Shown piece by piece: positions 1,708-30,900 of a DNA stretch of 64,000 bases (position 1 is its first letter; every line of letters begins with the position of its first letter). A model generated the notes under the pieces. The model worked only from the letters and a program-made list of their open reading frames with translations, had not been told where the DNA came from and did no database searches. Origin of the DNA: Owenia fusiformis (taxonomy: Eukaryota; Annelida; Polychaeta; Sabellida; Oweniidae); assembly GCA_903813345.2 (NCBI GenBank), contig CAIIXF020000005.1, positions 22,819,375 through 22,883,374 on the forward strand, given 5' to 3'. The translations under genes and the position numbers were made by a program.

Positions 1708-4700
1708 GTATGTGAATATTAATGGCTCAGAATCTTTTTAAGATTCACTTATTTCAGTTATGGACTTGTTGCCATGCTTTTTTGGGTACTTGCTGAGATA
1801 ACAGATTCACTTATAAAGTCACTGGCCACTGTCTTCAGGGCATGTCCTGATAAGTCAAGTCATGCTTTTAATATATATATCTGATTTATGCATTCAGTAC
1901 TAATCTACTTGTTTTAAGATATTGCCATATATAATATATATATAACATGGCATATTTCAAGTTTATATGTTTTAATCCATTCTTGAATTTAGAGCCTCAT
2001 TCAAAGTGGCAGCCAGTGCAATATCTAGTATAGCAGAGGCCATGGAGAATGGGGAGTATGACTTTGATGGCACACATGCTAAGAAAGCAGTGCCACCTAT
2101 TGTTGCAAGGGGGAATGCTGTAAGGGGCGAACTGTCAGATGTGGAACATGTCAAGTTCAGACTTGAGGCTAAGGACGAAGATATCAAAGAGTTGAAGAAA
2201 TTGCTTAAATTGAAGGTTAGATTTTCTCCTAAAATGGAATGCTTTCAACTAACACATTATCACATTTCTGCATTTATATGTATGGAATTGAAGGATGTAG
2301 AGGGATTTGAGAAATTCAATGAATGAATGATAATGATCATATCACCATAATTTGACATATTTTATTATACCTAAATAAGCTTGGTGAGTGATGGATGGCA
2401 GCATCACACTTTTCCTGTTTGCTTAGTTAAAATTGTCTCTTCCAGCAAGAAGAGTTGAGTGAACAGCAGGTTCGTGTTGGACTCATCGAGAGAAAGTTAG
2501 AAAACTCTGGGAAAGATAGTGATGATCGTGTGGAAAAAGTCCAACGGAAACTTGATGAAGCAAATCTTATGTTAAAGAAGAAAGAAAAGTAAGTCATCTG
2601 AGTGCAGTGATATAATACAAGTATTTCATAAATGTCTGCTGGAAATTTGCTTTCTGCTCATGCATGTTTTCTCGTATCTGATGCCACATCTCCAAAGAAT
2701 GATTGAAGTTCCAGTTTCAATTTCTTAACAATTTAGAATTTGGACCTTTCCCTTTGTTAATTCCCTTCCTTTCTTGTACATTTATGTTTTTTCAAATCAG
2801 GGAGTTTTTAGAAACTGAGGAAGTTTTAAGAAGTGACCTTGATGACCTACAGATAGACAAGATGTCGCTCCAGAACAAACTAAAAATGTTTAACTTGGAG
2901 TATTCCAGAGAACCAGGTTATATTGGCTCACCCTGTAGTAGCCTTGCTAAATTGGTTTAGGACACCCTGTAAACTTATCACGGTTTTAGCCATAATTCAA
3001 AGGAGCTATAAAATGGAAGAGAGGCGTATTAGGATTTCATCCTTTTACATCCCCTTCCGGTCATTTATACCTTGAAGATAAGTCATACATATTGGTAAAT
3101 GCTTTGTATAACTATAACAAGCATAGAATATGACGGGCATAATGTATTGTAATGTATATAGCGTTAGATGCATGGTATCATTGTGTAATAATAGCATTTA
3201 ATTGTAGGGTTAAATATTTGAAAGTTCACATGTTTAATGAAATCCCCCGAAAACCTACTCATGGGATGAGTTGACTTTTAAACATCTCAATCTACCTAAT
3301 AAAGATATAAATTCACAAACAAACAACTATTTTCAAATATGAAAATGTGTCATATTTTAGGTAAAATCAATTTCAAATAAATTCCAGGACTGTTAAAATT
3401 CAAGGCCCCTGATGTTAAGTGTGACTTATACTATACATCTAAATGTTCCTCATTGTCTCACTACCCTATCCAGTAAGTGGCATTACATGAGATATCCTCA
3501 ATGTATATGGATTATAAAACATGTGATCTTTTTTTTTGTGCAGGTGTACATGGTATTGGACATCATCCATGAACAAAATGTCAATCGGGTCACATATCTT
3601 TTCTCTCCGAATTTTTCTTTCAAATTTGAATGAACAGTTGAATTTTATGACATTTCTTTGTAATTTACACTTAATGTCTGTTTATTTTATTCCTTGGTAA
3701 TTCCTCTTTTTCTTAAACTATTTTCATTTGAAAGCATGACCACTATGACACTTTTTCATGGATCATCATTCATAACATTATAAACTTGAATCATCCCTTA
3801 ATGTTAACGCTTTCAGAGAATTCGATGAAACATTTGATGCACTTCAATCAGATATTGATTCTCTGGAGAATGAAAAGTCGGAACTGAAAGAGAGGCTGAA
3901 GATGTTAAGCAAAAAGGCTTTAATTGAGGGTCTCACCCAGAAGTCTGCTGGGATTAGTGCTTCGCCAGGTGGGCTTTATTAAGGGAACATCTGTTTTGGT
4001 CGTCGCAACTGATTTTCTGTGTACTCAATTCAGATTCATATTGTTAATACAATATTTTATACATATTATAAATTTCTAACCCTCTATTTCAAAAAATATA
4101 TAGCAAAGATATGTAGAAAAGTAGATATATGATCTCCCCAGCATTAAAGCAAGTGTGCGCACCCTTATAAAAAAAAACCCATTTTTTCCGAAATTCAATG
4201 GTTTCATTGCATATCATGTAACCATCATTTCAACCTTGAAGATCAAAGGGAAAATCATTATATCAACCATTCAAAACCATTGCGCAACCATTACTTCACC
4301 CAATCTTTTCAACCCTTTTTACATAAAGTTGCAATGGTTACGCAACCATTTTTGAGAAACCATTGCAAAACCATTACAACCATTACCCATTGAAATTAAC
4401 AGTTACAATTGATTGCAACCATTGATGGAGAACTGCAACTATTGCAACCATTAATCCTCAAAATGAATGCTCATGGGCAGACCTGTAGCCAGCTTTTGCA
4501 CTTTTGAAAAATTTACAAGGGTATTCATATTTTATAACTATGGCCAAAAATTGGCCAAAATCGCTTGAAAAGTCCTCAATATGGTGAAAAACTGCATGAA
4601 TTTGAAATAATTTTTGGCTATGGCTATGTTGATATTATTAGTATGTTTTTTTTATTTTTAAGTAAGCATGTCTGTAGTCTGCAGTCTATCACACTCTTCT

Positions 4701-7700
4701 CTCATTAAAGAATTTTTTTGGACTTTGTGTGTCTCGGATCTTGTTCTCAATGACAAGTCTGACGTCACTTCCAGAACAACAAAAAACATACACTTATTTG
4801 TATATATCATTTAATCTAATCCCTAGGATTTTAAACACTTATTTCTATGACTATTGCAATCACTTATCAGGTATCATTTTTAAGGAGAATGAAAAATGCA
4901 GAAATCTTGTGTGTAGTTTAACAAAATCATTACATGTACAAATTAATTCTTTTTTTAAGAATTATTTTTGTCTGAATAATTTATTTTTGAATTCCCCCTA
5001 CCATAATAATGACACAATCATAGTAAATTAGATGAGATTCACATTAAGATTTTTGAAGCCAGCTATGGTCTTGATGAATTCTCTTTTTTTCTAGCGATAG
5101 TTAACTTAAGTTCATAATACAATTTTGAGACATATCCAACTTCAAGTTCATGCTCATAGGCATAAAACCATGTTTAGTAAAAGGAAATATCATCTATTCA
5201 AGTGTTTAAGATATTTCCCTTTCAGTCATTATGATTAAAGTTTAATCCAATAGTAATTAATATTTTTTGATTTGTAAATGATATTGAAGAAAAGACAATC
5301 AATCCGGCTCTTGCCTAATCCAAAGCATAAATACAAGGATGTTGATGTTTCAAAATCATGTTTTGGAAACATTTTCAGTTTAATCTACTTAATTGTTTCA
5401 ATAAGACTTCTTTGATATTGAAGAAGCAGTTATTTTGGCACTAGCTTAATCCAAATCATAAATAAGAGGCAGGAAATACAGTCTTTGATGTTTCATAATA
5501 TGTATGTATGTACTTTTAGTCAGAAACATTTTTTTGTTGAGACAGGAGAAAAACAGAAAATTTCCACAGAATGTTTTGTTGTATTGTTCACTAAAACTGA
5601 ATGAATCAAGAAGGAATTTCCAAATAAACTACAAGAATAACCAGGGCCAAAAATGAATACACTTGATTCTCTTCAATAAAATAGAAATACTATCTCTAAG
5701 AACATGAACTTGAAGTAATATTCAGTACCAAAAATGAATAAACCTTATTCTCTTCAATTGATTAGAAATAATATGCCCATAAACATGAACTACTGTATTT
5801 TGAAACATAATAATGCATTCAATTTACTTGTATGTTCCTAATGTTTCAAATTGTCTCATTCTTAAACTAAATAATTTCCACAATATGGTTGAAAATAGTT
5901 GCAACCATTTGGTAAAATGCAACTTAAACAATCAATGGTTTGTAATGGTTGCAAATGATTCCATAATTTCAATGATATGCAACCAAAGTTTTCAACCAAA
6001 TTTTAATGGTTGCAATGTAATGGTTGGAAACCATTTCAATTGGTTGCAGCAATGGTTATGCAATGATTTGTAATGGTTGCGCAATGGATTTTAACAGTTG
6101 AAATTCGGAAAAAATGGTTGTTTTTTCCTAAGGGCAGCACCCACATGAGATTTTGAAAATAGGCTTGCACCCACCTGAAAATCCATTTGCACCCACTTGA
6201 AAATGAGAAGAATCATGAAATATTGGCATATTTTGACCAATTTTGGTCTGAATTGTGAAAGAGAATTTTGCACCCACCTGAGAAAATATCCTGGGTAGAT
6301 CAATGAGTATAGATAACAAGACGGACTTCCAAGACAATTGACGAAAGCCTAATATATAGAGGATATCCTATAATTTATGAGTGATATGATTTTTATCCAC
6401 GAATGGTTATGATATCTGCACGAGCGAGGTTAGCGAGAGAGTGCAGATACCAATATCCATGAGTGGATTAAAATCATATCACGAGTAAATCATAGGATGT
6501 TCTTTTTATTCCATAGTTAAAGTCATCATCAGAATTGTCGGAAATTAAGTTATTTAATTCGAATTTTGCAAACGATCCGGCGATGTTGACACTTAGCCTC
6601 GTTTTGAGTCTAAAGTAGCAAAAATCCATTAACCATCGCATACGACGTCGTATGTCATGGCTAAAAAACCGTATGCTATGGTTAAGTGAAAATTTGTCAA
6701 AAATATCATATTTTACCACTGATTACAAAAATACCGTTTTTATTTTCACATGTTATCCAATGAATATCATGCTAACTATGGAATAAAAGGGTAATATGAT
6801 ATGAAAATCTCCCCTATCAGCCTATATACTGAGTATATAATATAAAAGCTAGCTTATGTAGATTTATTCATCATTATTCATTAGTTAAAGCTTAAAATAG
6901 TTTTTACAGTTAATGACATTCAGTATATAATGCAGATACAACTGGGCACTAGGCCTGTATGAAATTGATTAATTTCAATTGATTGAAGCAATTAATGTCA
7001 GGAAAATTATCTTCAAAACATATACAGAAATTCACATTCAACTCTCTTTGAATATGAGTTCCTTTCCCGTAGTAAAGTGTGATCTTTCTTATAGGTGGCG
7101 CCGTAACTCCTCCCAGTCCCGGTGGTTCTCCAGTTAGGACGATTGTTGGGGATTCCCCACTGTTACTACAACAAATCTCATCCCTAAGGGAGGCCCTCAA
7201 ATTTGTCAAACATGAGAATATTCGACTGAAGGGAGAGAAAATGAAAGTAAGTATGTTATGCCACCTCAAGTATTCATTTCAAAACTGTTTCAGAAAATGA
7301 CACATATTTTTATATCACACAGATGAAACATGAAATAATTTCAGACAGTAAATTTCAGAGGGTAAAGTTATTTCTCATCTGCATGCATAACGATTCAGAT
7401 AGTTGAGACATTTTTGTTACAAAAGATTTAATAAGATATACTTTATTTCTGAGGAAATACAGTGTAGCCTGAATCTATCCATTCTTTAAACACTACTTTT
7501 CATGACCTCCTAATAATGTCCATTCCAGGTAAAGCTGGCTGGTCTGCCAGATCTGCAGGTGCCAAAGAAACCCACTGGACTGAAGAGCAATACAGGATTC
7601 ATTCCATTAGGGGAACTACCAGTGGAAATACAGGGTGGCCAGGATCTACAAAAACTTTCCAAGCAAACTAACTCTCTGATGAATGTAAGTTAAAAAAGGG

Positions 7701-9878
7701 TATGGTTGGCATTTGGCGTTTTGAGTTTGGCATCTGTAACAAATGGCAGGTGGTGACATTTTGCATATTGTTTGCCTTGTATTACTTTGTTAAAGTACTA
7801 GGTATAGTAGTAAAGCTGTACTAAATACCACACTGTTTTATAAAAATATTAGTGTGTAACCATGGTAACTAAATAACTAGGTAACTAAGTAAGCTACACA
7901 TATACCAGTATAAGAATATTTGAACATGTCAGACATCCTCTGTGTTCTATAAAACAAACTAAATTGTATGCTTCTTATTATATGCATATTTCACTAACAG
8001 GAGGTGTGTAGGTTGAGCTGTACTCCAATGGTAGTTGACATCACAAAGCGTCGCCAGGCAACAGTACCTGCCATAGAAAAGGCCAGCCCTGCTTCCCAGC
8101 TGATCCAGTCCGCATCAGAAGTGATACGTCTCCAGAAGCAGGCTGATGAGGTATGGCGTAATGTAAAAAGATATAAAAAAAGTTTAATGTCTAAATAACA
8201 AATGGCCTAGTTGGAACAAAATTATTATATACAGTCAATATGGTACAACGAAAATGGGACTTCTGCGCATGTTAACATTTTTCGTCAAAACTCAACTTTT
8301 GTTCAAGTTGATACGATTGTCTTTCGAACTAGAGACTTACCTCATTCGAAAGATCATAAAAGACTTTATCTATACTGAAAATCTTAGATCCAAACATAGT
8401 AGAATACGCCGTCAGTCCGCATTTGATTTTTTGAAGTGAGTTTCGTAGATCGTCAGATTTCTCCGACTGATATCGGGTTATCTCAAACTGGTTCGTTTAT
8501 AAATACGAATTTGTTTACCGTTATAAGGCGCATGCGCAAAATTGATTTATAAACCTTATTGGTTGATGGTTTTTCTCCTGCGCATGCGTGAAGTCTGATG
8601 AACACTTATGACGAAGACCAGAGCAAACATTACTAGCTCTTGAACGAAATTCCAAGATTCAGGTCATTTCGCCGTGTTTGCTAAGCGTGTATACGTGAAT
8701 GACAAGCTGTTTTGAGTAGATCGGGTACCTGTTTTAGACACAACATTGATTTAGCTTGACATTGATGTGCACATTGGCACTTTTGAGCATGTTAATACAA
8801 GTTTTTACACTCTTAGCACGAGACGGGTTTTCGAAAAATCTGTTATCTGATTCACTCGATTATCGTATGGATATGTATTTCTGCTGACATTTCAACACCA
8901 CATCACATAGAATTAAGATGCAGAATGATAATAAAACACAAAACAACTACTAAATTCCACTTGTTATTTCACAGGAGGTAAAAATGCAAACTGCCTAGAT
9001 TCTTTGTAAGGGTCGTCAGACATCGGATTGGCCGCCATATTTGAAATGAAAATATCACTAAATAAAGGTCTGCGCATGCCTCAACATTTCGACTGTATAT
9101 CGTATATTTAAATGTTGACCCTGTAAATAGTAACGATTAAATGTTTAATGCATTATTAAAGATAAAACAAGGTCTGCATAAAAATTTGATCAGCACATAA
9201 AGCATTTCTTCCAGTATAATGTACTTCTAAAACGTCATGCTTGTAACCTGTACACATGATATATTTATTAGTATTTACCTCTATATGTTAATACATGTAT
9301 TGTGATAATTGTGTTTTATTCCAGTTGCAAGTGAAGATTACAACAATGTTAGCACAGACAAGGAATGGAGGCCAAGTTAAGGCTGATTTCTCAAGCTTCC
9401 CTTCTCCTGCATACTCCAAGGTAAATTGTGAATCTAGATCATGTGATCATATATAACGGAGTGCCAGAAGAACACTCAAAGTATTCAAGGTGTTCATAAG
9501 CAGATTGCAAAAGGTTGTAAGAATACTACCTAAACAGGTATCTGAGATTAAAATATTGATAAGTACTAATTTACCTTTGAGAGGAGTAATATACACCTTA
9601 TCCTTATTTGATTCAATATCCTTCTATGCTTGCTTTGTAAGTGCCATGTATTGATTAAAAAATGTTGATCCTAACCAAGTTGGGATTTGTACTTAAATCA
9701 ATATTTCACATAACTAATTTACACCACATTATTTCAGGTGCTAGAAGAAAGGACCAAGGATACTCAACTTGTAGGACGTATAAGGATACCTGCAGAACAA
9801 GGCAAGGGTGGAGATGTAATCCCTGTCCTGCTCCAACCAGACCAGTTGAGACGAATACACTCCCAGTTTGTTAGCTGA
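1608..9878 (+). CDS. DCTN1: Dynactin subunit 1 (p150Glued), C-terminal part of gene
   Basis: This is the 3' part of the gene for the large dynactin subunit, the dynein cofactor arm that binds microtubules and dynein and whose C-terminal half contacts the Arp1 shoulder. Exons in the main form: 1608-1707, 1993-2215, 2446-2588, 3817-3968 (or 2801-2916), 7095-7246, 7529-7684, 8001-8150, 9325-9420, 9738-9878. All have AG/GT borders and compatible phases, giving 436 codons plus TGA (424 with the alternative exon). Recognition rests on remembered human DCTN1: MENGEYDFDG (human MQEGEYD), IKELKKLLKLK, KKEKEFDETFDALQSDID, GDSPLLLQQISSLR, VVDIT, and the C-terminus QLRRIHSQFVS (human QLHQLHSRLIS). The part present holds coiled coil 2 and the C-terminal region. 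The CAP-Gly domain, coiled coil 1 and dynein-binding parts lie upstream of the window. Family identity is certain; exon borders are read by eye. Confidence 0.95.
1993..2215 (+). CDS. DCTN1: DCTN1 exon, start of coiled coil 2
   Basis: Exon of 223 nt; its first base completes the Arg codon of the previous exon. It codes SSIAEAMENGEYDFDG, then VRGELSDVEHVKFRLEAKDE and IKELKKLLKLK, the conserved entry into dynactin coiled coil 2. The heptad-rich run ends in phase 0 at the donor GTTAGA. Confidence 0.94.
2446..2588 (+). CDS. DCTN1: DCTN1 exon, middle of coiled coil 2
   Basis: Acceptor CTTCCAG, donor GTAAGT. The 143 nt code EELSEQQVRVGLIERKLENS, DRVEKVQRKLDEANLMLKKK and end two bases into a Lys codon. 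Human dynactin has [20 protein letters not shown] and [20 protein letters not shown] at this point. The two downstream alternative exons both supply the missing third base. Confidence 0.94.
2801..2916 (+). CDS. DCTN1: DCTN1 alternative exon A (divergent copy)
   Basis: The 116-nt open segment has acceptor TTCAAATCAG and donor GTTATA. It codes EFLETEEVLRSDLDDLQIDK, MSLQNKLKMFNLEYSREP and a final G. It is clearly homologous to the exon at 3817 (EFDETFDALQSDIDSLENEK): both begin EF.ET and both contain RLKM or KLKM. It starts with one base completing the Lys codon of exon 2446-2588 and ends with one base of a Gly codon, exactly like the other copy. Using both would shift the frame. Its donor is weaker than that of its partner, and it lacks the IEG...SGI tail seen in human dynactin. 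It is probably a tissue- or stage-specific variant; a relic copy is possible but it has no stop. Confidence 0.75.
3817..3968 (+). CDS. DCTN1: DCTN1 alternative exon B (canonical end of coiled coil 2)
   Basis: The 152-nt exon has acceptor GCTTTCAG and donor GTGGGC. It codes EFDETFDALQSDIDSLENEK, SELKERLKMLSKKALIEGLT and QKSAGISASP. It matches the human [20 protein letters not shown] segment and the following IEGL...SGI, so it is the ancestral form. Its start and end phases equal those of exon A. Confidence 0.93.
4163..6135. mobile_element. Inverted-repeat DNA element in DCTN1 intron
   Basis: The arms 4163-4450 and 5878-6135 are inverted copies of a degenerate repeat built on CAACCATTGCAACCATT. 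The outer ends pair as AACCCATTTTTTCCGAAATT against AATTCGGAAAAAATGGTT. No transposase was seen between them. The middle holds imperfect direct repeats: about 125 bp twice (5278-5500) and about 85 bp twice (5636-5810). It looks like a non-autonomous fold-back or MITE-type element. The exact ends and target duplication are unclear. Confidence 0.6.
4485..4625. repeat. Dispersed repeat fragment (ATGGTGAAAAACTGCATGA family)
   Basis: This stretch shares the order TTTTGAAAA(A)TTT, TGGCCAAAAT, ATGGTGAAAAACTGCATGA, TTTGAAA.AATTTTTGG with the fuller copy at 60187-60403. It is a short relic of the same family. Confidence 0.5.
6363..6498. repeat. Long hairpin (fold-back repeat)
   Basis: Bases 6363-6421 pair with 6440-6498 as an imperfect stem of about 59 bp around a loop rich in GAGCGAGGTTAGCGAGA. 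A second inverted pair flanks the following stretch: TTTTATTCCATAGTTA near 6503-6520 and TAACTATGGAATAAAA near 6771-6787. Between them lies the 16-bp perfect palindrome CATACGACGTCGTATG at 6639-6654. Probably nested palindromic MITEs within the DCTN1 intron. Confidence 0.7.
7095..7246 (+). CDS. DCTN1: DCTN1 exon with the SPLLLQQI motif
   Basis: Acceptor TCTTATAG, donor GTAAGT. Two bases complete the Gly codon, then a Pro/Gly/Ser linker leads to VGDSPLLLQQISSLREALKF and HENIRLKGEKMK. Human dynactin has KDSPLLLQQISAMR and QHENSILKGAQMK here. Ends in phase 0. Confidence 0.94.
7529..7684 (+). CDS. DCTN1: DCTN1 exon, variable linker
   Basis: Acceptor CATTCCAG, donor GTAAGT, 52 whole codons. It codes VKLAGLPDLQVPKKPTGLKS through LQKLSKQTNSLMN. 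Similarity to human is weak apart from the K.S.L..LN pattern at the end, but phase, position and borders make it the next exon. Confidence 0.88.
8001..8150 (+). CDS. DCTN1: DCTN1 exon with VVDIT motif
   Basis: Acceptor CACTAACAG, donor GTATGG, 50 whole codons. It codes SCTPMVVDITKRRQATVPAI and PASQLIQSASEVIRLQKQAD. The VVDIT run and the coil after it match human [20 protein letters not shown]. Confidence 0.92.
8230..9097. mobile_element. Possible TA-inserting MITE in DCTN1 intron
   Basis: The segment begins TACAGTC and ends GACTGTA, each flanked by TA (8228-8229 and 9098-9099), as expected for a Tc1/mariner-type insertion. It is richer in CpG and GCGCATGCG words than its surroundings. Similarity of the arms beyond the first seven to ten bases is poor, so this is tentative. 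Confidence 0.4.
9325..9420 (+). CDS. DCTN1: DCTN1 exon, FSSFPSPAY segment
   Basis: Acceptor TTATTCCAG, donor GTAAAT, 32 whole codons. It codes LQVKITTMLAQTRNGGQVKA then DFSSFPSPAYSK, matching human TDFATFPSSAFLRAK. Confidence 0.92.
9738..9878 (+). CDS. DCTN1: DCTN1 terminal coding exon
   Basis: Acceptor ATTTCAG, then VLEERTKDTQLVGRIRIPAE, VIPVLLQPDQLRRIHSQFVS and TGA at 9876-9878. The last eleven residues match the human C-terminus in position and pattern, so this is the natural end of the protein. Confidence 0.95.
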   Translation: MLEERTKDTQLVGRIRIPAEQGKGGDVIPVLLQPDQLRRIHSQFVS

Positions 9879-15408: not shown

Positions 15409-18400
15409 CTAGAGCTGCAGAGCTTGCATAGGAATATTTGGTCGACGTAGGGATGTTGGTCTTGGAGGCACTTCAGGTAAGATACGAATGTGAAGTTTAG
15501 AGTCAAATGAGACCCTTTTAGATGGCGAAGGAGAGTTGGGGTGTCTCAAAATTGAACGGGAATTGTGTCTGTGCCTTGTAATTGGCTCATTATTTATGAC
15601 TGACACAGCAGTTGGGTTTGACCAACCAGTAGTCTTGTCAGGTTTTGACACTGCAGCAGAATTTGACACACCAGAAGAAAAAAACACCCCAGAACATTTT
15701 GGAATATCAGTTGGACTAGACACATCCATTGTTAAAAACGCTTCATTTAATGAAATTTCAGAAAATTCTTCATTCAATGAGGTCTCATCTCCAGTAGCCA
15801 CATAGAGGGAGGGAGACTCAGCTGGAAGGGGCTTTACTTCATGGTTAAGAGAACCAACTGCTGACAGAGGCTCATTACTTGGAGGGTTCATGCTTTCCAT
15901 ATCATCTTTACTTCTCAGTGGTATTTCCTCACATCGATCTTGTGGTTCATCAAAGCTATCTGAGTCTTTGGAAGATAGCATTATGGGAATGTTAAGTGAT
16001 ATCTTATTGTCCTCCTTTGGTGTATTTGACTCAGAGTTGAGATTATTTCTATTGCTTTGAAGCTCAGAGACGCCATTTGGAGATGTCATTTCCATGACAT
16101 TGCTATTGTTTTCTTTCATAATGTCAGGATATATTTCATCGGGTGAGAGTTGTTTGTGTTCACGAGCCTCAATGATACGTTGAATGTACCTTCCAAGAAG
16201 TCCATTTGTCTTCTCTTGTTTTGGTCGTTCATGACAGGGCTGTTCGTACTCCTTTCCCAAGTGTTTCAAGTATCGACCAATCAAACTACAGGCTATCATT
16301 TTTCCATTTTTGTTGCTTATGGAGGCACAGGGGATAACATATTTTGTGATTGAGGAATTGGGATGTCCAAAGTTTTCATCAGCCACATCAATTTGATCAC
16401 TTGGACTTATCAGAGCTTTAGACATGTTAGACATTGCTTTGTTTGGTTTGAACACAGCATCAGGGCTTTTGATCCATGTAATAGGAAACCTTAAATGTTT
16501 CTCACTTTTGCTGATGGAGTCCGAAGATGGTTGGCTCCTTTGGAAGGTTTTAAATCTTGGTGTGGAACTTCCCTGAATAGTCACATGTTGATTCTTTCTA
16601 GGAGTGACTTCTACACTTGAGGGATTCCAGGATGTTTCATTTTTTGTTGTTGAAACACAACATGTTTGACTTTTATTGGGTTTGAAGATTTCATGATTGG
16701 GTGTTGGTGCTTTCCCACTTTTGACATCTGGACTTTCTCCTTGGTTAACACCTGTGTTGACTTCACCTGTGGTGACTTGTGACTTCAAAGGTATCTCACA
16801 TATGTTGCTAGATATATATGATTGTTGATTCTTTTGTAAGTTGCTAATTTGAGCACTGGTACATGTAGTTGGGGTGTCCTTCATCTGTACAACTTGAAAT
16901 TCTCTCCGCATCACTCCTCTAGTTGAGTTAAAGACAAAGGATTTCTGACTCTTGTTGTCGTTTGAGATTTCAGCACTACTAGGGAAGGGGTTTTCAAGTA
17001 TATCAACTTCATCACTTTTTCTCCGAGCCCTGACTGATGAAGTCAGTGGTGTTGCTTGATGACCAAAGCTGAAGTTTGCTGGAACCTCCATAGTGTGCAA
17101 CTGTTTCCTGGTTTCATATAAAACTGGGCTCCACTTCTCCTTATTATTTGAGTCAGGTTGATTTCTTTCAGGACTCATACATGGTAGAGATGGACCATAA
17201 GGTACACCCAGTTGGGGCGATGATGCCAATATGTCTTTCCTATCTTTGTTTTGTTGGACTGTTGGTGTATCTGTCGTTCTCTGGTGTCTAGTGTTTTCTA
17301 AGATCATGTGTGGTTGAGGAGTAGGTCTAGTTTTGAGCTCAGAAGGGTATTCACCTTCTGTATGACCCAGGGACTCTTGGAGACCTGCTTGACCCTCTGT
17401 AGTTATCTGGGGACCTACTTGACTCCTTTCATTAGAACCATTCAATGCTCCTATGGATGGATGCCCCTTTGTTGACTTCACCTGTCTGTTGTTATTACCA
17501 TCTTTAGAGTGTTGCTTCTCAACTGATGCTACTCTTATGGCAGTTTTAGCCTTCTGTTTGGCTAGGATAGGTTTCAAAGTATCCATCAAACTAGCCATTG
17601 TTTCATGCAGCATTTGTTTCACAGATGTTGGAAGATCAATCGGGAAAAAGAAATCTGCACCAGGTGGACTTAAATACCCCAAAAGCTCAATTGCAGATAA
17701 CTGGAACTCTTCAAGAGCTGCCTTATTTGACTCAGCACCAAGATAAGCCTGTTTCAGTCTCAACATATCAATCAGTTCTTCTTTGGCAATCTCATTGTTT
17801 GCATGGGCAACTGCCATATGCTGGTCCAGGGCTTCATCTAATGACATTGGGAGACCCATAGCAGAAATGGGACTAAGAATGTTTTCCATTATGCTGTTGA
17901 ACCTCTGCACAGTTGAATGATTGAGGTTTGGATCATGGAGATGGGAAGAACCAGGGGGACTAAATAACTGCATGAGCTCCTTGGATTCTTTTCTAAACTT
18001 TGTCACCCTGTTTGGTGCCCAAGATGACAAGAGATTATACTTGATTTTCATCATCTCAAGTAGCTCAACCTTTGGAGATTCATTGTTTTCTCTTGCCTTG
18101 TACAGATATTCATCGACCTGATCAAGAAATTCACTTTCCTCTATGACGTCTTTGATATCCCAAGGTATGGCGTTGTCATGCTCTTCTGGGCTTCCATCCT
18201 CTATGGAGTCTGCCTGTTTACCCCTGATAACAGTTTGAACTAGTGATTTTGATATTTTGTCATTTTCTTGTATATTCTTGATGATACTCTGAGCACTAGC
18301 TTTGTCTGAATCAGAGAGATTTTCCCGGAGAAGTGAACAACACCCAGGTGGACTCAAACATGTCAACAGCTTCACAGATGACTTACGAAAACTTTTAGGA

Positions 18401-18979
18401 TTTTTCCATGATGGTGTTTTCCCTGTTTCAACCAACTGACCATATTTCAGCTTTAGATTCTCCAAAAGTTCCACTTTGGCTTTGTTATTGGTTCGGTAAG
18501 CCTCCTTGATGTTCTTATCAACTATTATGAGAAACCTTCTGTCCACATCTTTACGTAGGGCATCATTTTGTTCAGTCACAGTTTTTGGAGATTTTGTTGT
18601 TGGATTAGTGTGAGTCACAAGTTTCCCTGTTGGTTTTGCTGTTGGATTAGTTTGAGTCACAAGTTTCCCTGTTGGTTTTGTTGTTGGATTAGTTTGAGTC
18701 ATAAGTTTTCCTGTTGGTTTTGTTGTTGGATTAGTTTGAGTCATAAGCTTCCCTGTTGGTTTTGTTGTTGGATTAGTTTGAGTCACAAGTTTCCCTGTTG
18801 GTTTTGTTGTTGGATTAGTTTGAGTCATAAGTTTCCCTGTTGGTTTTGTTGTAGGTTTGCAAGTGGAGTCAGAAGACAAACCCGCCTCTTGTTTCTGTTT
18901 CTCTCTTAACTGGCTATCAAATATGTGGATGTTACCAGAGTGGTAACCTGCAAGCCTGGCTAGGTCCTTCACTGGACTC
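15409..18979 (-). CDS. PCED1: PCED1 gene 1, exon 7: repeat-rich tail
   Basis: A single 3.57-kb open exon ending in TAG at 15411-15409. In order (protein numbering): a link 294-336; six tandem 14-residue repeats TTKPTGKLMTQTNP at 337-420; three copies of a helical domain of about 95 residues ending in LSPPG or FSPPG (about 436-532, 568-661, 673-764); a long polar, probably disordered stretch rich in Ser, Asn, Pro and Lys; and a C-terminal block with SILR (1436-1439), KRVSF (1448-1452) and a Pro/Arg-rich end. I do not recognise the SPPG domain from any named family. Confidence 0.93.
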
Positions 18980-21900
18980 CTGGAACATTATTTCATACTC
19001 ATCATGATATACCAAACAGGAAAAAATTCATATCACAAAATTGTATTAGGTTTCCCGGTCCCATCTAACAAGTTGATTTTTTCAAAGTATCAAGAAGGAA
19101 ACAACTTATTACTGTATTATTAAACTATTGATATAAATGATAAACAAGATAGACAATAAATGATGAACAAGACGTAAATTTTGAGAGATTTTCATGGAGA
19201 ATTGAAGTATTATTTGGGGTTTGGAAAAAACTCTATGTCATATTGTGTACCTTATGAAAGGACCATTCTTCAGATGAGGTGAATTGTATCCAACAGGTCG
19301 GCCCATAAACACCCAAAGTTCAGCCACAGTATGAAGTAGCAGGTTAGTGATATGTCTGTGGGACACCCTGTAAATACAAATAAATAATGAATAACAAAAT
19401 ATCTATTGTCCATTTATAATAGACATTCAGTAAATGCATGTAGTATAGATGGAAAATATATGGAAAAATGTACATTTAAATTATAATGGGAAACTATAGA
19501 CAAATTGGATAAAAAGTATTACTTGTAATTAAGAAAATGGTTAATGATTTTAGGTTTTCAAAATAAAGGAAACTATGTTCTCATTCACATTATTAAAACA
19601 AGACACATGGTGAACAGGATTGTACCCTTGAATAGAATACGGTTTGGTTGGGAACCTGTAGACAAGCATTGACAAACAAAATTTTAGGACACAAAACCCA
19701 AAATGGCTGCCTTAACATTTACCCAGAATGCCCCAAAACTAATCCGTTCTAAACTTTCATCCGTAGAGAGGCCAAGAGACATCCCTGAAAACTTCCAATA
19801 AATCCATGAAAAGGTTTGGCTGGAAACCTGTAGACAAGCATTGACAAACAAGATTTTAATGATGGAAACTTTGCTTTCATATGTAGAAACATACCTGGAA
19901 ATTTCAGATGAATCCATGAAAAGGTTTGGCTGGAAACCTGAAGACAAGCATTGACAAACAAGATTTTAATGACGGAAAATCCAAAATGGCCGCCTAAACA
20001 TTTACCCAGAATGCCCCAAAACTAATCAGTTCTAAGCTTTCATATGTAGAAACATACCTGGAAATTTCAGATGAATCCATGAAAAGGTTTGACTGGAAAA
20101 CTATAGACAAACTTGACAAACAAGATTTTAATGACAGAAAATCCAAAATGGTCACTTTAACATTTACCCCGATTGCCCAAAAATCAGTTCTAAACTTTTG
20201 TACGTAGAGACATAACTGAAAATTTCAGATGAATCCCTTAAACGGTTTGGTTGGAAACCTGTAGACAAGCCTCGACAGACAAGACTTCAGGATGGAAAAT
20301 CCAAAATGGCCGTGCACCTTAAAATTAAATCAGATTGCCCAAAAACTAATCCGCTCTAAAGTTTCATACGCAGAAACATCCCTGAAAATTTCGGATGAAT
20401 CCATAAAATGGTTTGGCTGGAAATCCGTAGACAAGCCTAGTGAGCCAAGATTCCATGATGGAAAATCTTAAATTGCCACCTTTATATTTACCCAGAATGA
20501 CCAAAAAGTAATCAGTTCTAAACTTTCATCCGTAGAGACGTCCATGAAAATTTCTGATGAATCCCTGTAATGGTTTGGCTGGAAACCTGTGGACAAGATC
20601 GGGAGCCACCCATTGCCCTGCAAACTGATCACAATATAGCACCCAAGGATGCAATAAATATGCAAGAAACTTTGAACATCATAGAGTCAGTGCATGTTAC
20701 TTACAAAAATCAAATGTTTACCTATCCCAGTGTGTTCCATCTCCTCTTCTACGGAATCCCTGCTTTCGGAAGAAGAAATTGAGATCCAGGATACGACAAT
20801 TATAGTGAGACACAATTTTCTGGGCCCAAAGATTAGCCTGACTCACATCATTATTCAAGGACTTGCTGCGATGTTCAAGCTTCAAATAAATATAGGTCTT
20901 GATGAAATTCAGGCAGTATTAAACAGAGAGTAAGGTTAAGGGTGAACAGTTTCACATTTAACATTAAAAGATGGGATCCACTGTAAGGTTTATGTTAAAC
21001 ATTGATGTAGATAATCACAAGGTGAGAAGGTTCATTGACAGAGTGTGCCAGGTATCTAATCAACAGTTGGCTGAGCAACCATTTTTTAAAACAGGTTGGC
21101 CATAACAGAATGACTCGATTGGTAGTCAGTCTATATTTCCACTAAGTTGCATGATGGGACTCAAAATTTACTGATCACTTTACTTGGAAGAATGAATATT
21201 GTTGGAAAATCTTAAGTATTTTTTTAAAACTTTTTTTTGTCAAGTTTCATTGTAATTCGAGTCTACCTCTGGTGTAATGACTCCTCCCCTGCAACTCTCT
21301 GAAACAGGCAGAGCTGTGGCCCAAATGACAAGGGTATTACGTTGCAAGGCTCTATTCAATCCTTCCATCAGTGCTGTGAGATTGGTCCTATAGCCCTCCA
21401 TATATCCAACACCATACCTACATTCAGAGTTTCTAATATAAACAAAAGTAGAGAATGACAACTGCTTTATATTACATAAAATTATGTCAAATCACTAGAC
21501 ATTTCGGACATTACATGATGGAAATAACCAGGAAGTAGTAATGTAGCACTGTCTCAATTTTGGCAAAATCTGCACCCATGATCACACCGGAATACCATAA
21601 CGGTAAAGTCAGATACCGTTGTCACAAATGATGGCCACAGGTTCATATTCAATTTGATTTTCATTAACTGCATGTTTAATAGAGCACCTAGATTAAATTC
21701 CAATGGTACAACAATCAATCAAAGTGTCTTTCTACTCATCATATAGTTAAATATGTTCTACCATCTGAATAAAGTCTTTAATTTTACCGATCGAACTATG
21801 ACAACATTTGATTGAATTTGGGATTTCATATGATACACCATCACAAGAGCTTAATACATCCACAAAATCAGCGATGATAAGGTCCCATGAAATGAGAATT

Positions 21901-24900
21901 AAGTGATTAAAGAGTTGAATCGATGGTTATGTTCGCCATTTGTGACAACGGTATTTGACTTTACTAATGTCCGGTGTGATGATGTCACATGGCACCAATT
22001 GGTATTTTGAGTGGCCTTTAGAAACTGACTGAGCAAATATCTATGTCCATAAGGCTTCAGCACAAAACATTTAAACCAAATCAAAGATAACATTTTTTAA
22101 CAAATAATCTTAACCATTTTGAATAGAGTGGTCATCTCAAAAATTCATTCTTAGGTATTCCTTTTGAACCAAATCCTTCAATTGGTATTTGAATTATCAA
22201 AGATCACATTTTATAAAGGTGGCCATTTTGAAGAGTGCAGGCCATATTGAAAATGCCTTCTTGAGCATAGGTCCTTGCATGTAGAACAATAGCCTATAAA
22301 ATTTGGACAAAATTCAATAGATGCTATTTAATTTTATAATGAAATGGTGGCCATTTTGAAATAAAGTGGCCAACTTGAGCAGGACTCCTATGTCTCTAAG
22401 ACATCAGCATAGAAAATTTGAACCAAATCCGTCACCTGGTATTTTTGTTAAGAAAATGATGGTCATTTTGAACTGAGTGGCCATATTGAAAATTCCTTCT
22501 CGAGCAGAGGTCCTGTGCCCATACCTCGGCCATAAGGCATGTGTCTATAGAATTTGAACTAAATCACCAACTGGTATTTAAGTTATCGTATTTAAGTTAT
22601 CACTTGGACACATGAACACACAGACAGCTTCTTTATATCCCTAACAGACTCTGTTCGGTGGGATAATGACAAAGTAATGGTGTGACTCAGAACATTAGGC
22701 TTTAAGGCTGCATTTCATTGTCCAATCTCAATCACTAAATGAGTTTCAAGTCAGTTGATCTATTATGTCTTGACTTATACCCAATTCACACATATGCTAC
22801 ATGATCACTCATATATATTGTACAATCACCAAATATCATGCTGTCTGAAAGAGTATACTGGCACACTTAATACTTACTGTAAGCTGTGACCTACCTCGTC
22901 ATGTCCCAAAGACAGGAGTTTATGAGAATAAGATCAGGCTGGGGTCCAGATGCCAAGTCCTCTAGTATTGTCTCCATGTAGGCACTATAGGCACGTGTGA
23001 TGAAATAGAATCTTATGATGAGATTCTGGGCTGTGTATTGCCGCACTTCTCTGTATGTGGGCTCATTTACCATCAAGCCAAGTTTACCACCTTCTATCAG
23101 TTCATCATTTTCAAATGAGAGCTCACCCTATGAAAACAAAAGCAAGTCTTAAAACAAGGCATTAACATGCAAAATGTCACAACTTGCCACAGACACCAAC
23201 CACCAAATCATAAGATAAAAGGTCCAACTGTTTGATTTTTCAGATAATGTTTACTTTGGTAACTACATGGTGTCCCAAAAGTATGGGGGCCCCCCTAGGC
23301 AGACATATACCAATGACTTCATGGTATGTGTCATATATCAGTTTAAAGCTTATCAAAATTTACATTGATTTGCCAAGTATCATCGTTCAACTCACAAATG
23401 GTAAAAAGTTACAGGCATTTCAAAACTTAGTGTTTGGCCAAAAATATAGTTCATTTCAGTATCCTGGAAACAGCCCTGACCTGAATGTGACTGAAAATAT
23501 GGGTGCTATTGTCGACAAAAGGATGGATATCAAGTTCTAAAAAGAGGAAGTTGAGGGTAGATACTCCAAGGAAACTCTTCTAGAATGCCTTCAAAAGGTT
23601 TTATGAGGATTACAAAATGCCAAATCCCTATTTGAAGCACGTTTAAGGTCATATATGGAAAGCAATGCTGCCGTTAACATGGCTTAAGGAGACACACCGA
23701 CTATTATTTTTGTGTTAAACTGACTTTAATTTTGGCCAAACACTAAATTTTGAAATGCCTGTGACACTTGGCAGATCAATGTAACTTTAGATGATCTTTA
23801 AAATGATATATGACACATACTATGGAGGCATTGGTATATGTCTGGCTAGGGGGGGGCATACTTTCCGGACACCCTGTAAATTGATGTCACCAGGACAAAC
23901 CACTTGAATCCCAGGTTCTAAAATTTGTTTGAAACCAGGGAATGTTTCACTTTTGCTAGTCTTTGACATTTTACTACATACATTACATATATAACAGGTG
24001 ATGCTCAATTTAGTGAAATTAGCCAGCAGAGATCATTTCTACACATTTTAAAACATTTTTGGTGTAAATTGGATGAATAAAACTAGAGCAATTTTTGTGA
24101 AAAATTTTCAGACAGTTTTTCTCGTCACTCTAGATTTCAATGTCATTTCTAAGGTGACGAGAAATCTTGTCACTCAGGTAGTCTTTGCTTGATTGTCAAA
24201 GAGAGTTACAATTGTAGCCATAACTAGACTTGGGAAATTGAACGAAGTTCAATTTCAGACTCCAGATCTAGACTTTTTTTTAGCCGAGTCATCCAGAATA
24301 AGCCGAGTCATCCAAAATAAGCTGAGTCATCCAGAAAAAGATGGATGGATGGATGGATGAAAAAGGAAGGAAGGATAGGCTAGAATAGGAAGGGACGATA
24401 GGATAGAATAAGAAAGAATGATAGAATAGAATAGGAAGAAGGAATAGAATAGGAAGGATAGGAAGGAGAGGATAGGAAGGAGAGGATACGAAGGAAAGGT
24501 AGATAAGAAGGATACGATAGGATCACAAAGGAAGGATGGATGCATTTTTCAATATTTTCTTCTCTACTCTTGACTTTCTATCAGGATACCATCAGATCGA
24601 TTTTTCTCGAAATTTCAAAACCCCATAATTTTCGAACCGGAAGTCTGATCGAAATTTGGTTTGCAGAGTCGGATTCCTGAGAAAATTCTGCCTTTAATTC
24701 ATAACTCATATGTTAAATTTTGAGAACTTTTTATTTTGATCTACTTTTCGGACACCATATCTCAAAAGTGGGTCGAAATACTTTCTGACGGCAAAAAGCT
24801 AACACTATTAGCACACTCTTTCCCACCTGTATACAAAATTTTGAAGCAAATCTTATAAATATAGTGTCAGAATCGCAAAAATAAGGAAAAACTATGAATT

Positions 24901-27900
24901 TGACCTAGATTTTGACCTAGGGATTTTGGTGTCCAAATTTTGAAGTTAGGTAGCCTTCGAGGTCCCCTTCTTGCATAGGCTTTCATTATTTTAAGCTGTA
25001 CTTAGTCTATATCTCGTATTTTACACTTCAAAAAAATCCTTTTTCCCATTGACATAACATGGGGCACCAAATTTAGCGATTTTTGAGCTTTCAAAATGTC
25101 ATAACTTCCGAACCGGAAGTTGGATCAAAATTTGATTTGCAGATTCGGATTCCTGAGAAAATTCTATACTTAATTCATAACTCAAACGTTAAATTTGGAG
25201 AATTTTTTTATTTTGACCTACTTTTCGGACACCATATCTCAAAAGTGGGTCAAAATACTTTCTGACGGCAAAAGGCTAACACTATTAGCACACTCTTGGC
25301 AACATGTATACAAAATTTCGAAGAATATAATTAATCTGTAGTGTCAGAATCGCAAAAATAAGGGAAAACTTTGAATTTGACCTAGATTTTGACCTAGGCA
25401 TTTTGGTGTCCAAATTTTTATGAAAAGAAGGTTTTGAGGTCCCTTTCTTTTATGGGCTTCCATTATGTTTAGCTGTGCTTAGTCTATATCTCGTACTTTA
25501 CACTTCAAAAAAATTTTTTTTCCATTGAATTAACATGGGGCACCAAATTTAGCGATTTTTGAATTTTCAAAACGCCATAACTTCTGCACCGGAAGTCAGA
25601 TCGAAATTTTGTTTTCAGATTCGGAATCCTGAGAAAATTTCCTATAAAACTGATATCCTGGACATTGGATTCGAAGAACTTTTTTTTGGACCTCGTTTTC
25701 GGACACTGATATCTCGAAATCGGTTTGAGATACCAAAAAACTAAATCACCCTAGATTTTCTACTTTTTTATGAGGAACACAATGAAAAAAAACCGGATCA
25801 AAAATATTGAAGGACGACCGAGAAAATCGAAAAAAGTGACAAAGTACTGGATTTGACCTAGTTCTTGACCTTTGACCTAGATAAAAATTTGACCCAATTT
25901 CCCACCAACTAGATACTGAACCTAAATGAACTGTATAATGGTCTTTACTGGATACCTTATAGTTATTGAAAAAACTCTTAAAGAAAAATAATAACTAGAC
26001 TTTGGAAATTGAACGAAGTTCAATTTCAGACTCCAGATCTAGACTTTTTTAAGCCCAGTCATCTAAAATAAGCCGAGTCATCCAGAATAAGCTGAGTCAT
26101 CCAGAATAAGATGGATGGATAAAATAGGAAGGTAGGATAGGATAGAATGGGAAGGAACGATAGGATAGAATAAGAAAGAAGAATAGGATAGAACAGAATA
26201 TGAAGAAAGGATATGATAGGAGAGGAAAGGAAGGATAGGAAGGAAAGGATACGAAGGAAGGATAGATAGGAAGGATAGGATAGGATCAGATAGGTAGGAT
26301 GGATGAATTTTTCAATATTTTCTTCTCTACTCTTGACTCTCTATCAGGATACCATCAGATCGATTTTCCGAAATTTCAAAACGCCATAACTTCCGAACCG
26401 GATTTAAAGTTTCGGATTCCTGACAAAATTCTACCCCTAATTCATAACTCATACGTTAAATTTGGCGAATTTTTATTTTGACCTACTTTTTGGATACGCC
26501 ATTACTTCGGAACCGGAAGTCGGATCGAAATTTAGTTTGCAGACTCGAATTCCTGAGAAAATTCTACCCTTAATTCATAACTCATATGTTAAATTTGGAG
26601 AACTTTTTTTTTTACCTTCTTTTCGGACACCATATCTTAAAAGTGGGTCGAAATACTTTCTGACGGCAAAAGGCTAACACTATTAGCACACTCTTTCCCA
26701 CCTGTATACAAAATTTTGAAGCAAATAATTTAAATATAGTGTCAGAATCGCAAAAATAAGGAAAAACTATGAATTTGACCAAGATTTTGACCTAGGGATT
26801 TTGGTGTCCAAAATTTGAAGTTGGGTAGCCTTCGAGGTCCCCTTCTTTCATAGGCTTTCATTATTTTAAGCTGTACTTAGTCTATATCTCGTATTTTACA
26901 CTTCAAAAAAATCTTTTATCCCATTGACATAACATGGGGCACCAAATTTAGCGATTTTTGAGCTTTCAAAATGTCATAACTTCCGAACCGGAAGTCAGAT
27001 CGAAATTTGGTTTGCAGATTCGGATTCCTGAGAAAATTCTATACTTAATTCATAACTCAAACGTTAAATTTGGAGAATTTTTTATTTTGACCTACTTTTC
27101 GGACACCATATCTCAAAAGTGGGTCAGAATACTTTCTGACGGCAAAAGGCTAACATTATTAGCACACTCTTGGCTACTTGTATACAAAATTTCGAAGAAT
27201 ATAATTAATCTGTAGTGTCAGAATCGCAAAAATAAGGAAAAACTTTGAATTTGACCTAGATTTTGACCTAGGCATTTTGGTGTCCAAATTTTTATGAAAA
27301 GAAGGTTTTGAGGTCCCTTTCTTCTATGGGCTTCCATTATGTTTAGCTGTGCTTAGTCTATATCTCGTATTTTACACTTCAAAAAAATATTTTTTCCCAC
27401 CAAATTTAGCGATTTTTGAATTTTCAAAACGCCATAACTTCTGAACCGGAAGTCAGATTGAAATTTGATTTTCAGATTCGGAATCCTGAGAAAATTCTCT
27501 AAAAGACTGATATCCTGGACATTGGATTCGGAGAACTTTTTTTTGGACCTCGTTTTCGGACACTGATATCTCGAAATCGGTTTGAGATACCAAAAAACTA
27601 AATCGACCCTAGATTTTCTACTTTTTTATGAGGAACACAATGAAAAAAACCCGGATCCAAAATATTGAAGGACGACAGAGAAAATCGAAAAAAGTGACAA
27701 AGTACTGGATTTGACCTAGTTCTTGACCTTTGACCTAGATAAAAAATTGACCCAATTTCCCACCAACTAGATACTGAACCTAAATTAACTGTATTATGGT
27801 CCTTACTGGATACCTCATAGTTATTGAAAAAACTCCTAAAGAATAATAAGAATAACTAGATTTGTAAATTGAACAAAGTTCAATTTAAGACTCCAGATTG

Positions 27901-30900
27901 TTTGATTTGACCTAGATAGCTGAGTAAGTAGCCCAGTAAGAAGCTGTGTAGAAAGCTGAGTAAGTAGCTAAGTAGGTAGCTGAGTAAGTAGCTAAGTAGA
28001 TAGCTGGGTAGTTATGTAGGAATTTTTGAAAGTATATTTCATCGATCTGCATTCTGGATACTGGCATAGAATCTTAACTGAAAGTCGGATTTCAATTTCG
28101 ATTTCAGATTCAGATTCCTGAGAAAATTCTACCCTTAATTCATAACTCATACGTTAAAGGAGTTGGGTAAACAAGGCCATTTTAAGCCCCACCTGATTTT
28201 CAAGTTTTCTCTTTATTTTATTAATCTATGTGATATATGTGTTTCAAAAATGTATGAAAATTTAGGTCAAGGTCATATTCCCCAGGTCAAGGTCAAATTA
28301 AAAAAATATATTAAATATATTAATATATTCCGCCCTTCCCACGCAACACTGAAAGAGAAAAAAGTACCTAAAATAATGAAAATACTTTATTATTTTTAAT
28401 TCATTTAAATTCAGAATGTACATTTCATGATTTGACTCGTAAAGTAATGTTTATTTTTTATGAGAAATATGTCCTGCTTCCTGTTAGCGACATAGGGTAT
28501 GCTAAAAACCACACACTAAACACACACACTGTATATATTATAATTCAACATAATGATATTATTCAACATAATTTTAAAGCAACTATTAAGTTTATTATCA
28601 ATCATTCTGATAATGTCTAGGAAACAGTAAGTACAGATAACGGAGATAATCACTTCTTGGAGATCACCTAAAAGGTGAAAAACATCTAAAATCTCAACAC
28701 ATTTCATCATTGGCTTGTTAATGAAATAACAATGAAACATTTTCTGATTAGTTTTACTCATCATCACTTGAACTATTATTATTGCATATTATCTGTCCAA
28801 CTTTGGCATTCTTGACTTGTGAAGCTAAATCTTCTATAACCTTTCTCCGTTTTCTAGGAGAATTTACCTGCTTCCTACATATGCAGCATGAATAGCATTT
28901 GGCCATTTTGAATAATCAACAAAAATGGCAGGCAAAATTTTCTATAAAGTTCTAAAACTCACATCGAGCATAATAAGTCTCCATCAAAATTATTCTTTGT
29001 ATGCAACAATATAACATTTATGTAACTAAAGAAGCACTTATTAGAGTGGAGACTTGTTATGCTCTATGTGAAAACACACAAAGGATTACTACCTCCAGTG
29101 AATAAAAATGTCACCCAGACTCAGCATGAAATGTCCTTTCAAAGCTTCACTTACCTCTAAACTGTACATATTGTTTAAATCAATTGTATGTATGGATCAA
29201 ATAAATATATATTTACATAATCCTGGACAGATAAATCAAAAACATTCATTCATAGCTGAGTAAATTGGAATTCATCAAGAGGGTTGCAAAATATGTGAAT
29301 TTTTTTCCTTCTGGCCCCCACCCTCTTTGAAGGTCTCCAGACACCGTAACAATTTTTTCTAATTTTTTTTAAAAATACTACCCAAAAATATAGACTTCAA
29401 TCTATGCATTTCTGATGTTTTTTTCTCCTATTCTTAAAAAAAGTTTTTTCACACTTCAATTGGGGCACTCTCTGTTGCTAGTTTACCCAACTCCTTTGAA
29501 TTTTTTTATTTTGACCTACTTTTCGGACACCATATCTCAGAAGTGGGTCAAAATACTTTCTGACGGCAAAAGGCTAACACTATAAGCACACTCTTTGCTA
29601 CATGTATACAAAATTTTGAAGCAAATCTTTAAAGTGTAATGTCAGAATCGCAAAAATAAGGAAAAACTATGAATTTGACCTAGATTTTGACCTGGGCATT
29701 TTGGTGTCCACATTTTAAAGATAGATAGCCTTCGAAGTCCCCTTCTTTCATGGGCTTTTAGAATGTTAAGCTGTACTCAGTCTATATCTGGTATTTTACA
29801 CATTAAAAAAATCTTTTTTCTCATTGACATAACATGGGGCACCAAATTTAGCGATTTTTGAGCTTTCAAAACGTCATAACTTCTGAACCGAGAGTCGGAT
29901 TGAAAATTGGTTTGCAGATTCGGATTCATGACAAAATTCATAATTCATACATTGAATTTGGAGAACTTTTTGTTTTGACCTACTTTCCAGACGCCATATT
30001 TCAAAATCAGTAAGAGTAATCAAAAAATGGATGGCACACTTATAAATGGGCTGTTTATAAGCTACATGATGAAAAAAGATGGAGATGTTTCGATAAATAA
30101 CGACGAAGATAATTGATAGAATATTGAAAATGTAAGATTTGACCCAGTTCTAGGATAGGATAGGATATAGAATAGGAAGGAAGGATAGGATAGGAAGGAA
30201 AGGATAGAAAGGAAGAATAGATAGGAAGGATATGATCAGACGGGATAGGAAGGAAGGATGGATGATTTTTTCTATATTTTCTTTGCTACTCTTGACTTTC
30301 TATCAGGATATCAACAGATCGATTTTTCTCGAAATTTTCAAAACGCAATAACTGTCGAACTGGATGTCGGATCGGAATTTGGTTTGCAGATTCAGATTCC
30401 TGAGAAAATTCTACACTTATTTCATAGCTCATATGTTAAATTTGGTTAACTTTTTAGTTTGACCTACTTTCAGGTCGCCATATCTCAAAACCGGTAGACG
30501 TAATCAAAAAACCGATCACACACAGTCGAATCGTCTTTTTATTGGCTACACGGTAAAAAAAAAAAAAAAAATTGAAAAATGACAAAGATAATTTGACCTA
30601 GATTTTGACCTTTGACCTAGATAAAAATTTGACCTAATTTCCCAGAAACTAGGTCACATACCCTAACTGACCATGTAAGTAGATTTACTACAAGTCTTCT
30701 AGTTACTGAGAAAACGTGACAAGAGAGAATAATAATAACTAGACTTTGGAAATTGAACGAAGTTCAATTTCAGACTCCAGATTGAGTCCATTTTTAGCTG
30801 AGTCATCCAGAATAAGCTGAGTCATCCAGAAAAAGATGGATGAATAAAATAGGAAGGTAGGATAGGATAGAATAGGAAGGAACGATAGGATAGAATAAGA

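What the first reader, a model, noticed from the sequence alone, without database searches (positions are those of the whole stretch)
2801..3968. Mutually exclusive duplicate exons at the end of dynactin coiled coil 2
Two homologous exons (2801-2916 and 3817-3968) lie in tandem. Both start one base and end one base into a codon, so either can join exon 2446-2588 to exon 7095-7246, but inclusion of both breaks the frame. The downstream copy is human-like; the upstream copy keeps EF.ET...SD(L/I)D.L...(K/R)LKM but loses the IEG tail. This would give two p150 forms differing at the end of CC2, a region reported to contact other dynactin/dynein parts, and I know of no such pair in vertebrate DCTN1.
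Basis: partly seen in the sequence, partly recalled or inferred. Interest (0 to 1): 0.85.

Follow-up and report, generated by a model that had tools for sequence, protein, structure and literature searches.

The report
Possible twin exons in worm dynactin
An animal gene for the largest part of dynactin, very probably from a marine worm, carries two old, related versions of one exon and so may make two kinds of the arm that helps the dynein motor, but there was no RNA evidence to show that both are used.

Summary
Window 2801-2916 and 3817-3968 are homologous exons of DCTN1 (p150Glued), in phase with exons 2446-2588 and 7095-7246. Either alone keeps the frame; both or neither breaks it. The in-register similarity at the acceptor scores 70; the best of 14,500 other AG sites scores 23. 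Identity by codon position is 18, 20 and 8 of 30, and a codon model disfavours neutral evolution of the pair and of the upstream copy alone: an old duplicate kept for its protein.

The animal is not a vertebrate. Hox genes and 12 chromosome-size contigs point to an annelid, very probably Owenia (inference).

Best reading (0.64): mutually exclusive exons giving p150 two versions of distal CC2 and its hinge, one 12 residues shorter, just before p150 enters the dynactin shoulder. Weak point: the upstream donor CAG|GTTATA is poor and the frame runs on to TAG at 2958-2960, so an alternative last exon or a decaying exon is not excluded. A 2012 survey saw alternative DCTN1 isoforms only in vertebrates (passages). 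No transcript data and no related genome could be reached here; RNA-seq junction counts would settle it.

The parts
2446..2588 (+). DCTN1 exon before the pair (CC2); ends two bases into a codon; donor AAA|GTAAGT
2801..2916 (+). Upstream, divergent copy of the distal-CC2 exon (116 nt); acceptor strong (6.2 bits), donor CAG|GTTATA weak (3.5 bits)
2917..2960 (+). Open frame that runs on past the donor to TAG at 2958-2960; coding only if the upstream copy is a last exon
3298..3381 (+). AATAAA motifs at 3298 and 3376 in the 900-nt intron between the copies; at about the background rate, so not evidence by themselves
   Evidence: 59 in 64 kb on the + strand
3817..3968 (+). Downstream, human-like copy of the distal-CC2 exon (152 nt); donor CAG|GTGGGC
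7095..7246 (+). DCTN1 exon after the pair; its first two bases complete the codon begun by either copy

Best explanation
The distal-CC2 exon of this DCTN1 gene was duplicated in tandem long ago and both copies are kept as alternative coding exons, of which a transcript uses one. Shown: homology, position at a strong acceptor, equal phases, a frame that survives only if exactly one copy is used, near-random third positions with conserved first and second positions, and no further copies found. Inferred: splicing picks one copy; products with both or neither carry early stops and would go to nonsense-mediated decay. The 900-nt intron between the copies makes simple steric exclusion unlikely (recalled rule). 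Inferred function: the upstream form keeps leucines and other core residues at 6 of 9 assumed heptad sites, changes the surface, and has 12 fewer residues in the linker before p150 enters the shoulder, so it would give dynactins whose p150 arm differs in hinge length and surface at its base.
For: Frame logic. Score 70 against at most 23 at 14,500 other AG sites. Codon positions 18/20/8 of 30; 14 shared residues, only 4 with the same codon; omega 0.08 over 1 by 2 delta lnL 12.06. With the upstream branch alone set neutral, best lnL -220.20 against -215.62 free. Acceptor score reached by 0.58% of 7,229 AGs. Published prediction criteria met: 12 aa length difference (limit 20), same phases, similarity 29% of self score by my own alignment (threshold 15%) (PMC3228551 passages). 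In that paper 65 of 94 such exons on the fly X fell in internal mutually exclusive clusters (26 of the 65 already annotated), and 0.56% of other exons (90 of 16,180) share the features.
Against: No transcript evidence. Donor at 2916 scores 3.5 bits against 5.3-10.1 for 17 other donors of the gene; 7.8% of simulated donors are as weak, and 15.9% of all 6,688 GTs score as high, so it is hardly above background. The open frame continues 14 codons past the donor, and that tail resembles human GLRGPPPSGIATLV (shuffle p 0.002; 0.0068 for the longer tail). Only 30 codons, grid-fitted with kappa fixed; a recent loss of function would not show. No related genome was reached.
Confidence: 0.64

Rival explanations
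1. The upstream copy is an alternative last exon: entered through its strong acceptor, read to TAG at 2958-2960 and polyadenylated in the intron. The product would be a p150 ending just after CC2, without the part that is built into the dynactin shoulder, and so free of dynactin.
For: Strong acceptor with weak donor. Frame open to 2957, TAG 2958-2960. The 14-residue tail aligns without gaps to human GLRGPPPSGIATLV, 7 identities, shuffle p 0.002. AATAAA at 3298 and 3376. The survey of mutually exclusive exons warns that terminal exons can look mutually exclusive through alternative polyadenylation (PMC5740500 passages); 8 of 94 candidates in PMC3228551 were of that kind.
Against: AATAAA occurs 0.92 times per kb on this strand, so two in 900 nt is not remarkable. 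The tail shows no similarity to the downstream exon's own tail (p 0.67), and in the coil the upstream copy never matches human where the downstream copy does not, so a tail kept only from the vertebrate split is odd. The comparison was made after seeing the alignment.
Confidence: 0.16
2. The upstream copy is a former alternative exon that has lost, or is losing, its use: still open, but its donor has decayed.
For: Weak donor; 12 residues lost; a recent death leaves the constraint signal intact.
Against: Still open over the 38 codons up to the donor and 14 beyond, strong acceptor, and the upstream branch prefers constraint. In a neutral simulation about 25-37% of copies stay open at 0.4-1.0 changes per site, but few keep this score: 8.2% at 0.4, 0.03% at 0.8, 0 of 4,000 at 1.0.
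Confidence: 0.12
3. The upstream copy is a regulatory 'poison' or ordinary cassette exon: its inclusion together with the downstream copy shifts the frame and lowers p150 output through decay.
For: Using both copies gives a stop inside the downstream exon.
Against: Such an exon need not keep a coiled-coil protein sequence, whereas protein-level constraint is seen.
Confidence: 0.08

Closest known systems
Mutually exclusive exons from tandem exon duplication (WebScipio criteria, PMC3228551; human atlas, PMC5740500; passages seen)
   Same: Neighbouring homologous exons of similar length, same phases, each fitting the same flanking exons
   Different: Mutually exclusive use not shown here; one copy has a weak donor and a 12-residue shorter end; a DCTN1 pair was not found in my searches
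Vertebrate DCTN1 exon 27 (EEQQR), alternative, just behind CC2 (PMC3583065 passages)
   Same: Alternative splicing at nearly the same place of p150, function not analysed according to that paper
   Different: A five-residue cassette exon in vertebrates; here a duplicated whole exon that replaces the end of CC2 and the linker
Vertebrate DCTN1 transcripts with intron 22 retained (PMC3583065 passages)
   Same: Would parallel the last-exon reading: p150 without the C-terminal part that enters dynactin
   Different: Ends before CC2 by intron retention, not after CC2 through a duplicate exon

Membership tests
Mutually exclusive exon pair | Neighbouring exons encode homologous sequence | tested here: met
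   14 of 30 identical, score 70 against at most 23 elsewhere; 29% of self score
Mutually exclusive exon pair | Similar length (difference up to 20 aa) and the same phases | tested here: met
   116 and 152 nt, both fit phases 2 and 1; criterion from PMC3228551 passages
Mutually exclusive exon pair | Usable splice sites at both ends of both copies | tested here: inconclusive
   Upstream acceptor strong; upstream donor 3.5 bits, weak; on a matrix from the gene's own 20 donors the downstream donor is the lowest (-1.85 when left out) and the upstream one scores 1.5
Mutually exclusive exon pair | Transcripts hold one copy, never both or neither | not testable with these tools
   No transcript data; only the frame consequence was computed
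Alternative last exon | Open frame to a stop inside the exon, no donor needed | tested here: met
   TAG at 2958-2960
Alternative last exon | Polyadenylation site downstream | tested here: inconclusive
   AATAAA at 3298 and 3376, near background rate
DCTN1 (p150Glued) gene | Sequence match over CC2 and C-terminal part, CAP-Gly exon upstream | tested here: met
   phmmer E 1.9e-38; CAP-Gly match at C5:22766247 and ordered exons in between; the basic region and one exon were not placed

The most novel reading that the evidence does not exclude
The duplicate exon makes a natural p150 that ends after CC2 (alternative last exon): a dynactin-free arm that could still bind the dynein intermediate chain and LIS1 through CC1B and so act as a built-in competitor of dynactin in some stage or tissue.
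Probability: 0.12. Interest if true: 0.7.

Novelty: new member of a known kind. Interest (0 to 1): 0.47.

Why it matters
The survey I saw (PMC3583065, passages) reports alternative DCTN1 isoforms only in vertebrates, as exons of a few residues. A kept pair of versions of the distal CC2 and hinge would be a natural swap experiment on a stretch of p150 that a recent cryo-EM study could not see (residues 988-1088; PMC7615804 passages), and would make it testable whether hinge length or surface at the base of the arm tunes dynein activation. The last-exon reading, if true, would be a built-in dynactin competitor.

Tried and rejected
Chance similarity between coiled coils: rejected. A third copy in 2589-7094: none (next best score 15 against 69). 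Other genomic or processed copies: none found. Steric exclusion: the intron is 900 nt (recalled rule on distance). U12-type incompatibility: donors do not look U12-like (by eye, recalled motif). RNA pairing as a selector: one search gave 40 inverted pairs in 2589-7094, 25 shown; the longest belong to 6354-6509 and to the multi-copy element; no selector was pursued. Relatives: viral contigs (42 pattern stretches, none confirmed), genome contigs (177 stretches, none confirmed). COX1 for naming the species: not in the assembly. Excess identity in the heptad core: 6 of 9 against 8 of 21, Fisher p 0.24, not significant. In one search only the upstream copy was allowed to change, so its joint test on third positions is too strict and I do not use it. 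One intron (before the exon at about 1608) gave only a poor donor (-2.9) and was left out of the donor sets.

Papers: all 10 searches used. I saw their listings; of the papers I saw passages or one section of PMC3583065, PMC10289029 (exon term only as a software category), PMC8047447 (passages, outline and section 7), PMC5740500 (dynactin only in its reference list among the passages), PMC7615804, PMC7737607, PMC3228551, PMC9977687. Within these I met no report of this pair; only open-licence PubMed Central text is covered, and supplements were not available.

Full report
What was checked. The window is C5:22819375-22883374 of a 498-Mb assembly in 525 contigs. The finding lies in a + strand gene at the window's start. 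Translated exons match 'Dynactin subunit 1' chains in the PDB (5 distinct sequences, best E 1.9e-38). With recalled human p150 as a guide, exons follow in order from CAP-Gly matches 53-55 kb upstream of the window to C-terminal matches at window 9322-9438 and 9744-9875. The last two are weak alone (E 0.11 and 0.032). The basic region and one exon before window 1608 were not placed. The Dynactin family model matches only at this locus (2 of 2 matches).

The pair. Both copies take up the two codon bases left by exon 2446-2588 and leave one base for exon 7095-7246. Either alone is open; both or neither gives early stops. The copies are 116 and 152 nt; their first 30 residues share 14 identities, and the upstream one lacks 12 residues of the linker.

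Not chance. From each AG in 134 kb, both strands, I read the frame that an exon here would need and scored it in register against the downstream exon. The upstream exon scores 70; the best of 14,500 others scores 23. Against recalled human p150 the upstream 30-mer scores 56 at residue 1011 and at most 26 at the other offsets (1,248 in all). No third copy lies in 2589-7094, and the own-genome searches found neither exon elsewhere.

Old and constrained. Identity by codon position is 18, 20 and 8 of 30; of 14 shared residues 4 use the same codon. A codon model on a grid (kappa fixed at 2) prefers omega 0.08 over 1 by 2 delta lnL 12.06. Setting only the upstream branch neutral costs about 4.6 lnL units (-220.20 against -215.62). 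This rests on 30 codons, and a recent death of the exon would not show. The upstream copy matches human at 11 of 30 sites, the downstream at 20, and no site matches human in the upstream copy alone; both window copies share S11, K28 and M29, which human lacks (from the same sequences). This fits a duplication after the split from the vertebrate lineage.

Splice sites. The upstream acceptor scores 6.2 bits on a recalled matrix, reached by 0.58% of 7,229 AGs. The donor CAG|GTTATA scores 3.5 bits, against 5.3-10.1 for 17 accepted donors of the gene; 7.8% of simulated donors are as weak, and 15.9% of 6,688 GTs score as high. With a matrix from 20 donors of this gene, each left out in turn, the downstream exon's donor is lowest (-1.85) and the upstream donor scores 1.5, between that and the next lowest (2.9). 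So the donor is weak, and how unusual that is depends on the yardstick.

The main rival. The frame passes the donor and ends at TAG 2958-2960. Those 14 residues align with human GLRGPPPSGIATLV (7 identities, shuffle p 0.002), and AATAAA occurs at 3298 and 3376. This would fit an alternative last exon. Against it: AATAAA runs at 0.92 per kb here, the tail does not resemble the downstream exon's tail (p 0.67), the comparison was made after seeing the alignment, and the upstream copy has no human-only residue in the coil.

What it would do. [quoted passage not shown]). In a 2024 structure residues 988-1088, the C-terminal half of CC2, were too flexible to see (PMC7615804 passages). The pair covers roughly human residues 1010-1070, the flexible base of the arm. 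My inference is a change of hinge length and surface with dimerization kept; the heptad-core identity (6 of 9 against 8 of 21) is not significant.

Which animal. The largest contig seen (C1, 62.2 Mb) holds 11 Hox-type matches within 0.5 Mb, among them a homeodomain followed by KLTGP (a Lox5 mark, recalled) and two that look like Lox2/Lox4 (recalled), and a posterior-type gene about 39 Mb away. Of 21 contigs whose length I saw, 12 are 31.9-62.2 Mb and the rest under 0.7 Mb. Owenia fusiformis is described with 12 chromosome-scale scaffolds, 505.8 Mb, and a compact Hox cluster on chromosome 1 with Post1 apart on the same chromosome (PMC9977687 passages). I infer Owenia or a near relative; no alignment was possible.

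Known work. Hammesfahr and Kollmar 2012 (PMC3583065 passages) give alternative DCTN1 exons 5, 6, 7 and 27 in vertebrates and state that such isoforms were not identified in any other species analysed. Exon 27 lies right behind CC2, so vertebrates vary nearly the same place by another route. The pair meets the published prediction criteria (PMC3228551 passages); that paper assigns 65 of 94 such exons on the fly X to internal clusters, 21 to promoter clusters and 8 to poly(A) clusters.

Verdict. A real, old and constrained duplicate exon in a lophotrochozoan DCTN1. Mutually exclusive use is the likeliest reading (0.64) but is unproved.

Noticed in passing
4162-6134: Multi-copy element with inverted ends (51 nt, 78% complementary) inside the intron after the pair; one end (4140-4700) gave 43 matches in the genome, itself included, many at 95-98% identity, with 40 of 717 candidates scored, so a recent insertion.
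   Followed up: partly
15412-18987 and 51666-56795, minus strand: Two long open frames (1192 and 1710 aa) with no Pfam match at E 0.001 and no meaningful likeness to each other (best E 0.47).
   Followed up: partly
24200-44200: Many tandem arrays, several with a period near 477 nt and others of 5, 12, 19 and 23 nt.
   Followed up: no
61785-63992: GC-rich arrays of CCCCCAGAAGCTATA-like units in opposite orientations about 62.6 kb, flanked by nearly the same peptide frame on opposite strands (61785-61988 minus, 63789-63992 plus): looks like an inverted duplication.
   Followed up: no
2916-2917 and 3968-3969: By a matrix from this gene's own 20 donors both members of the pair have low-scoring donors (1.5 and -1.85), which would fit regulated splicing of both; small sample.
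   Followed up: partly
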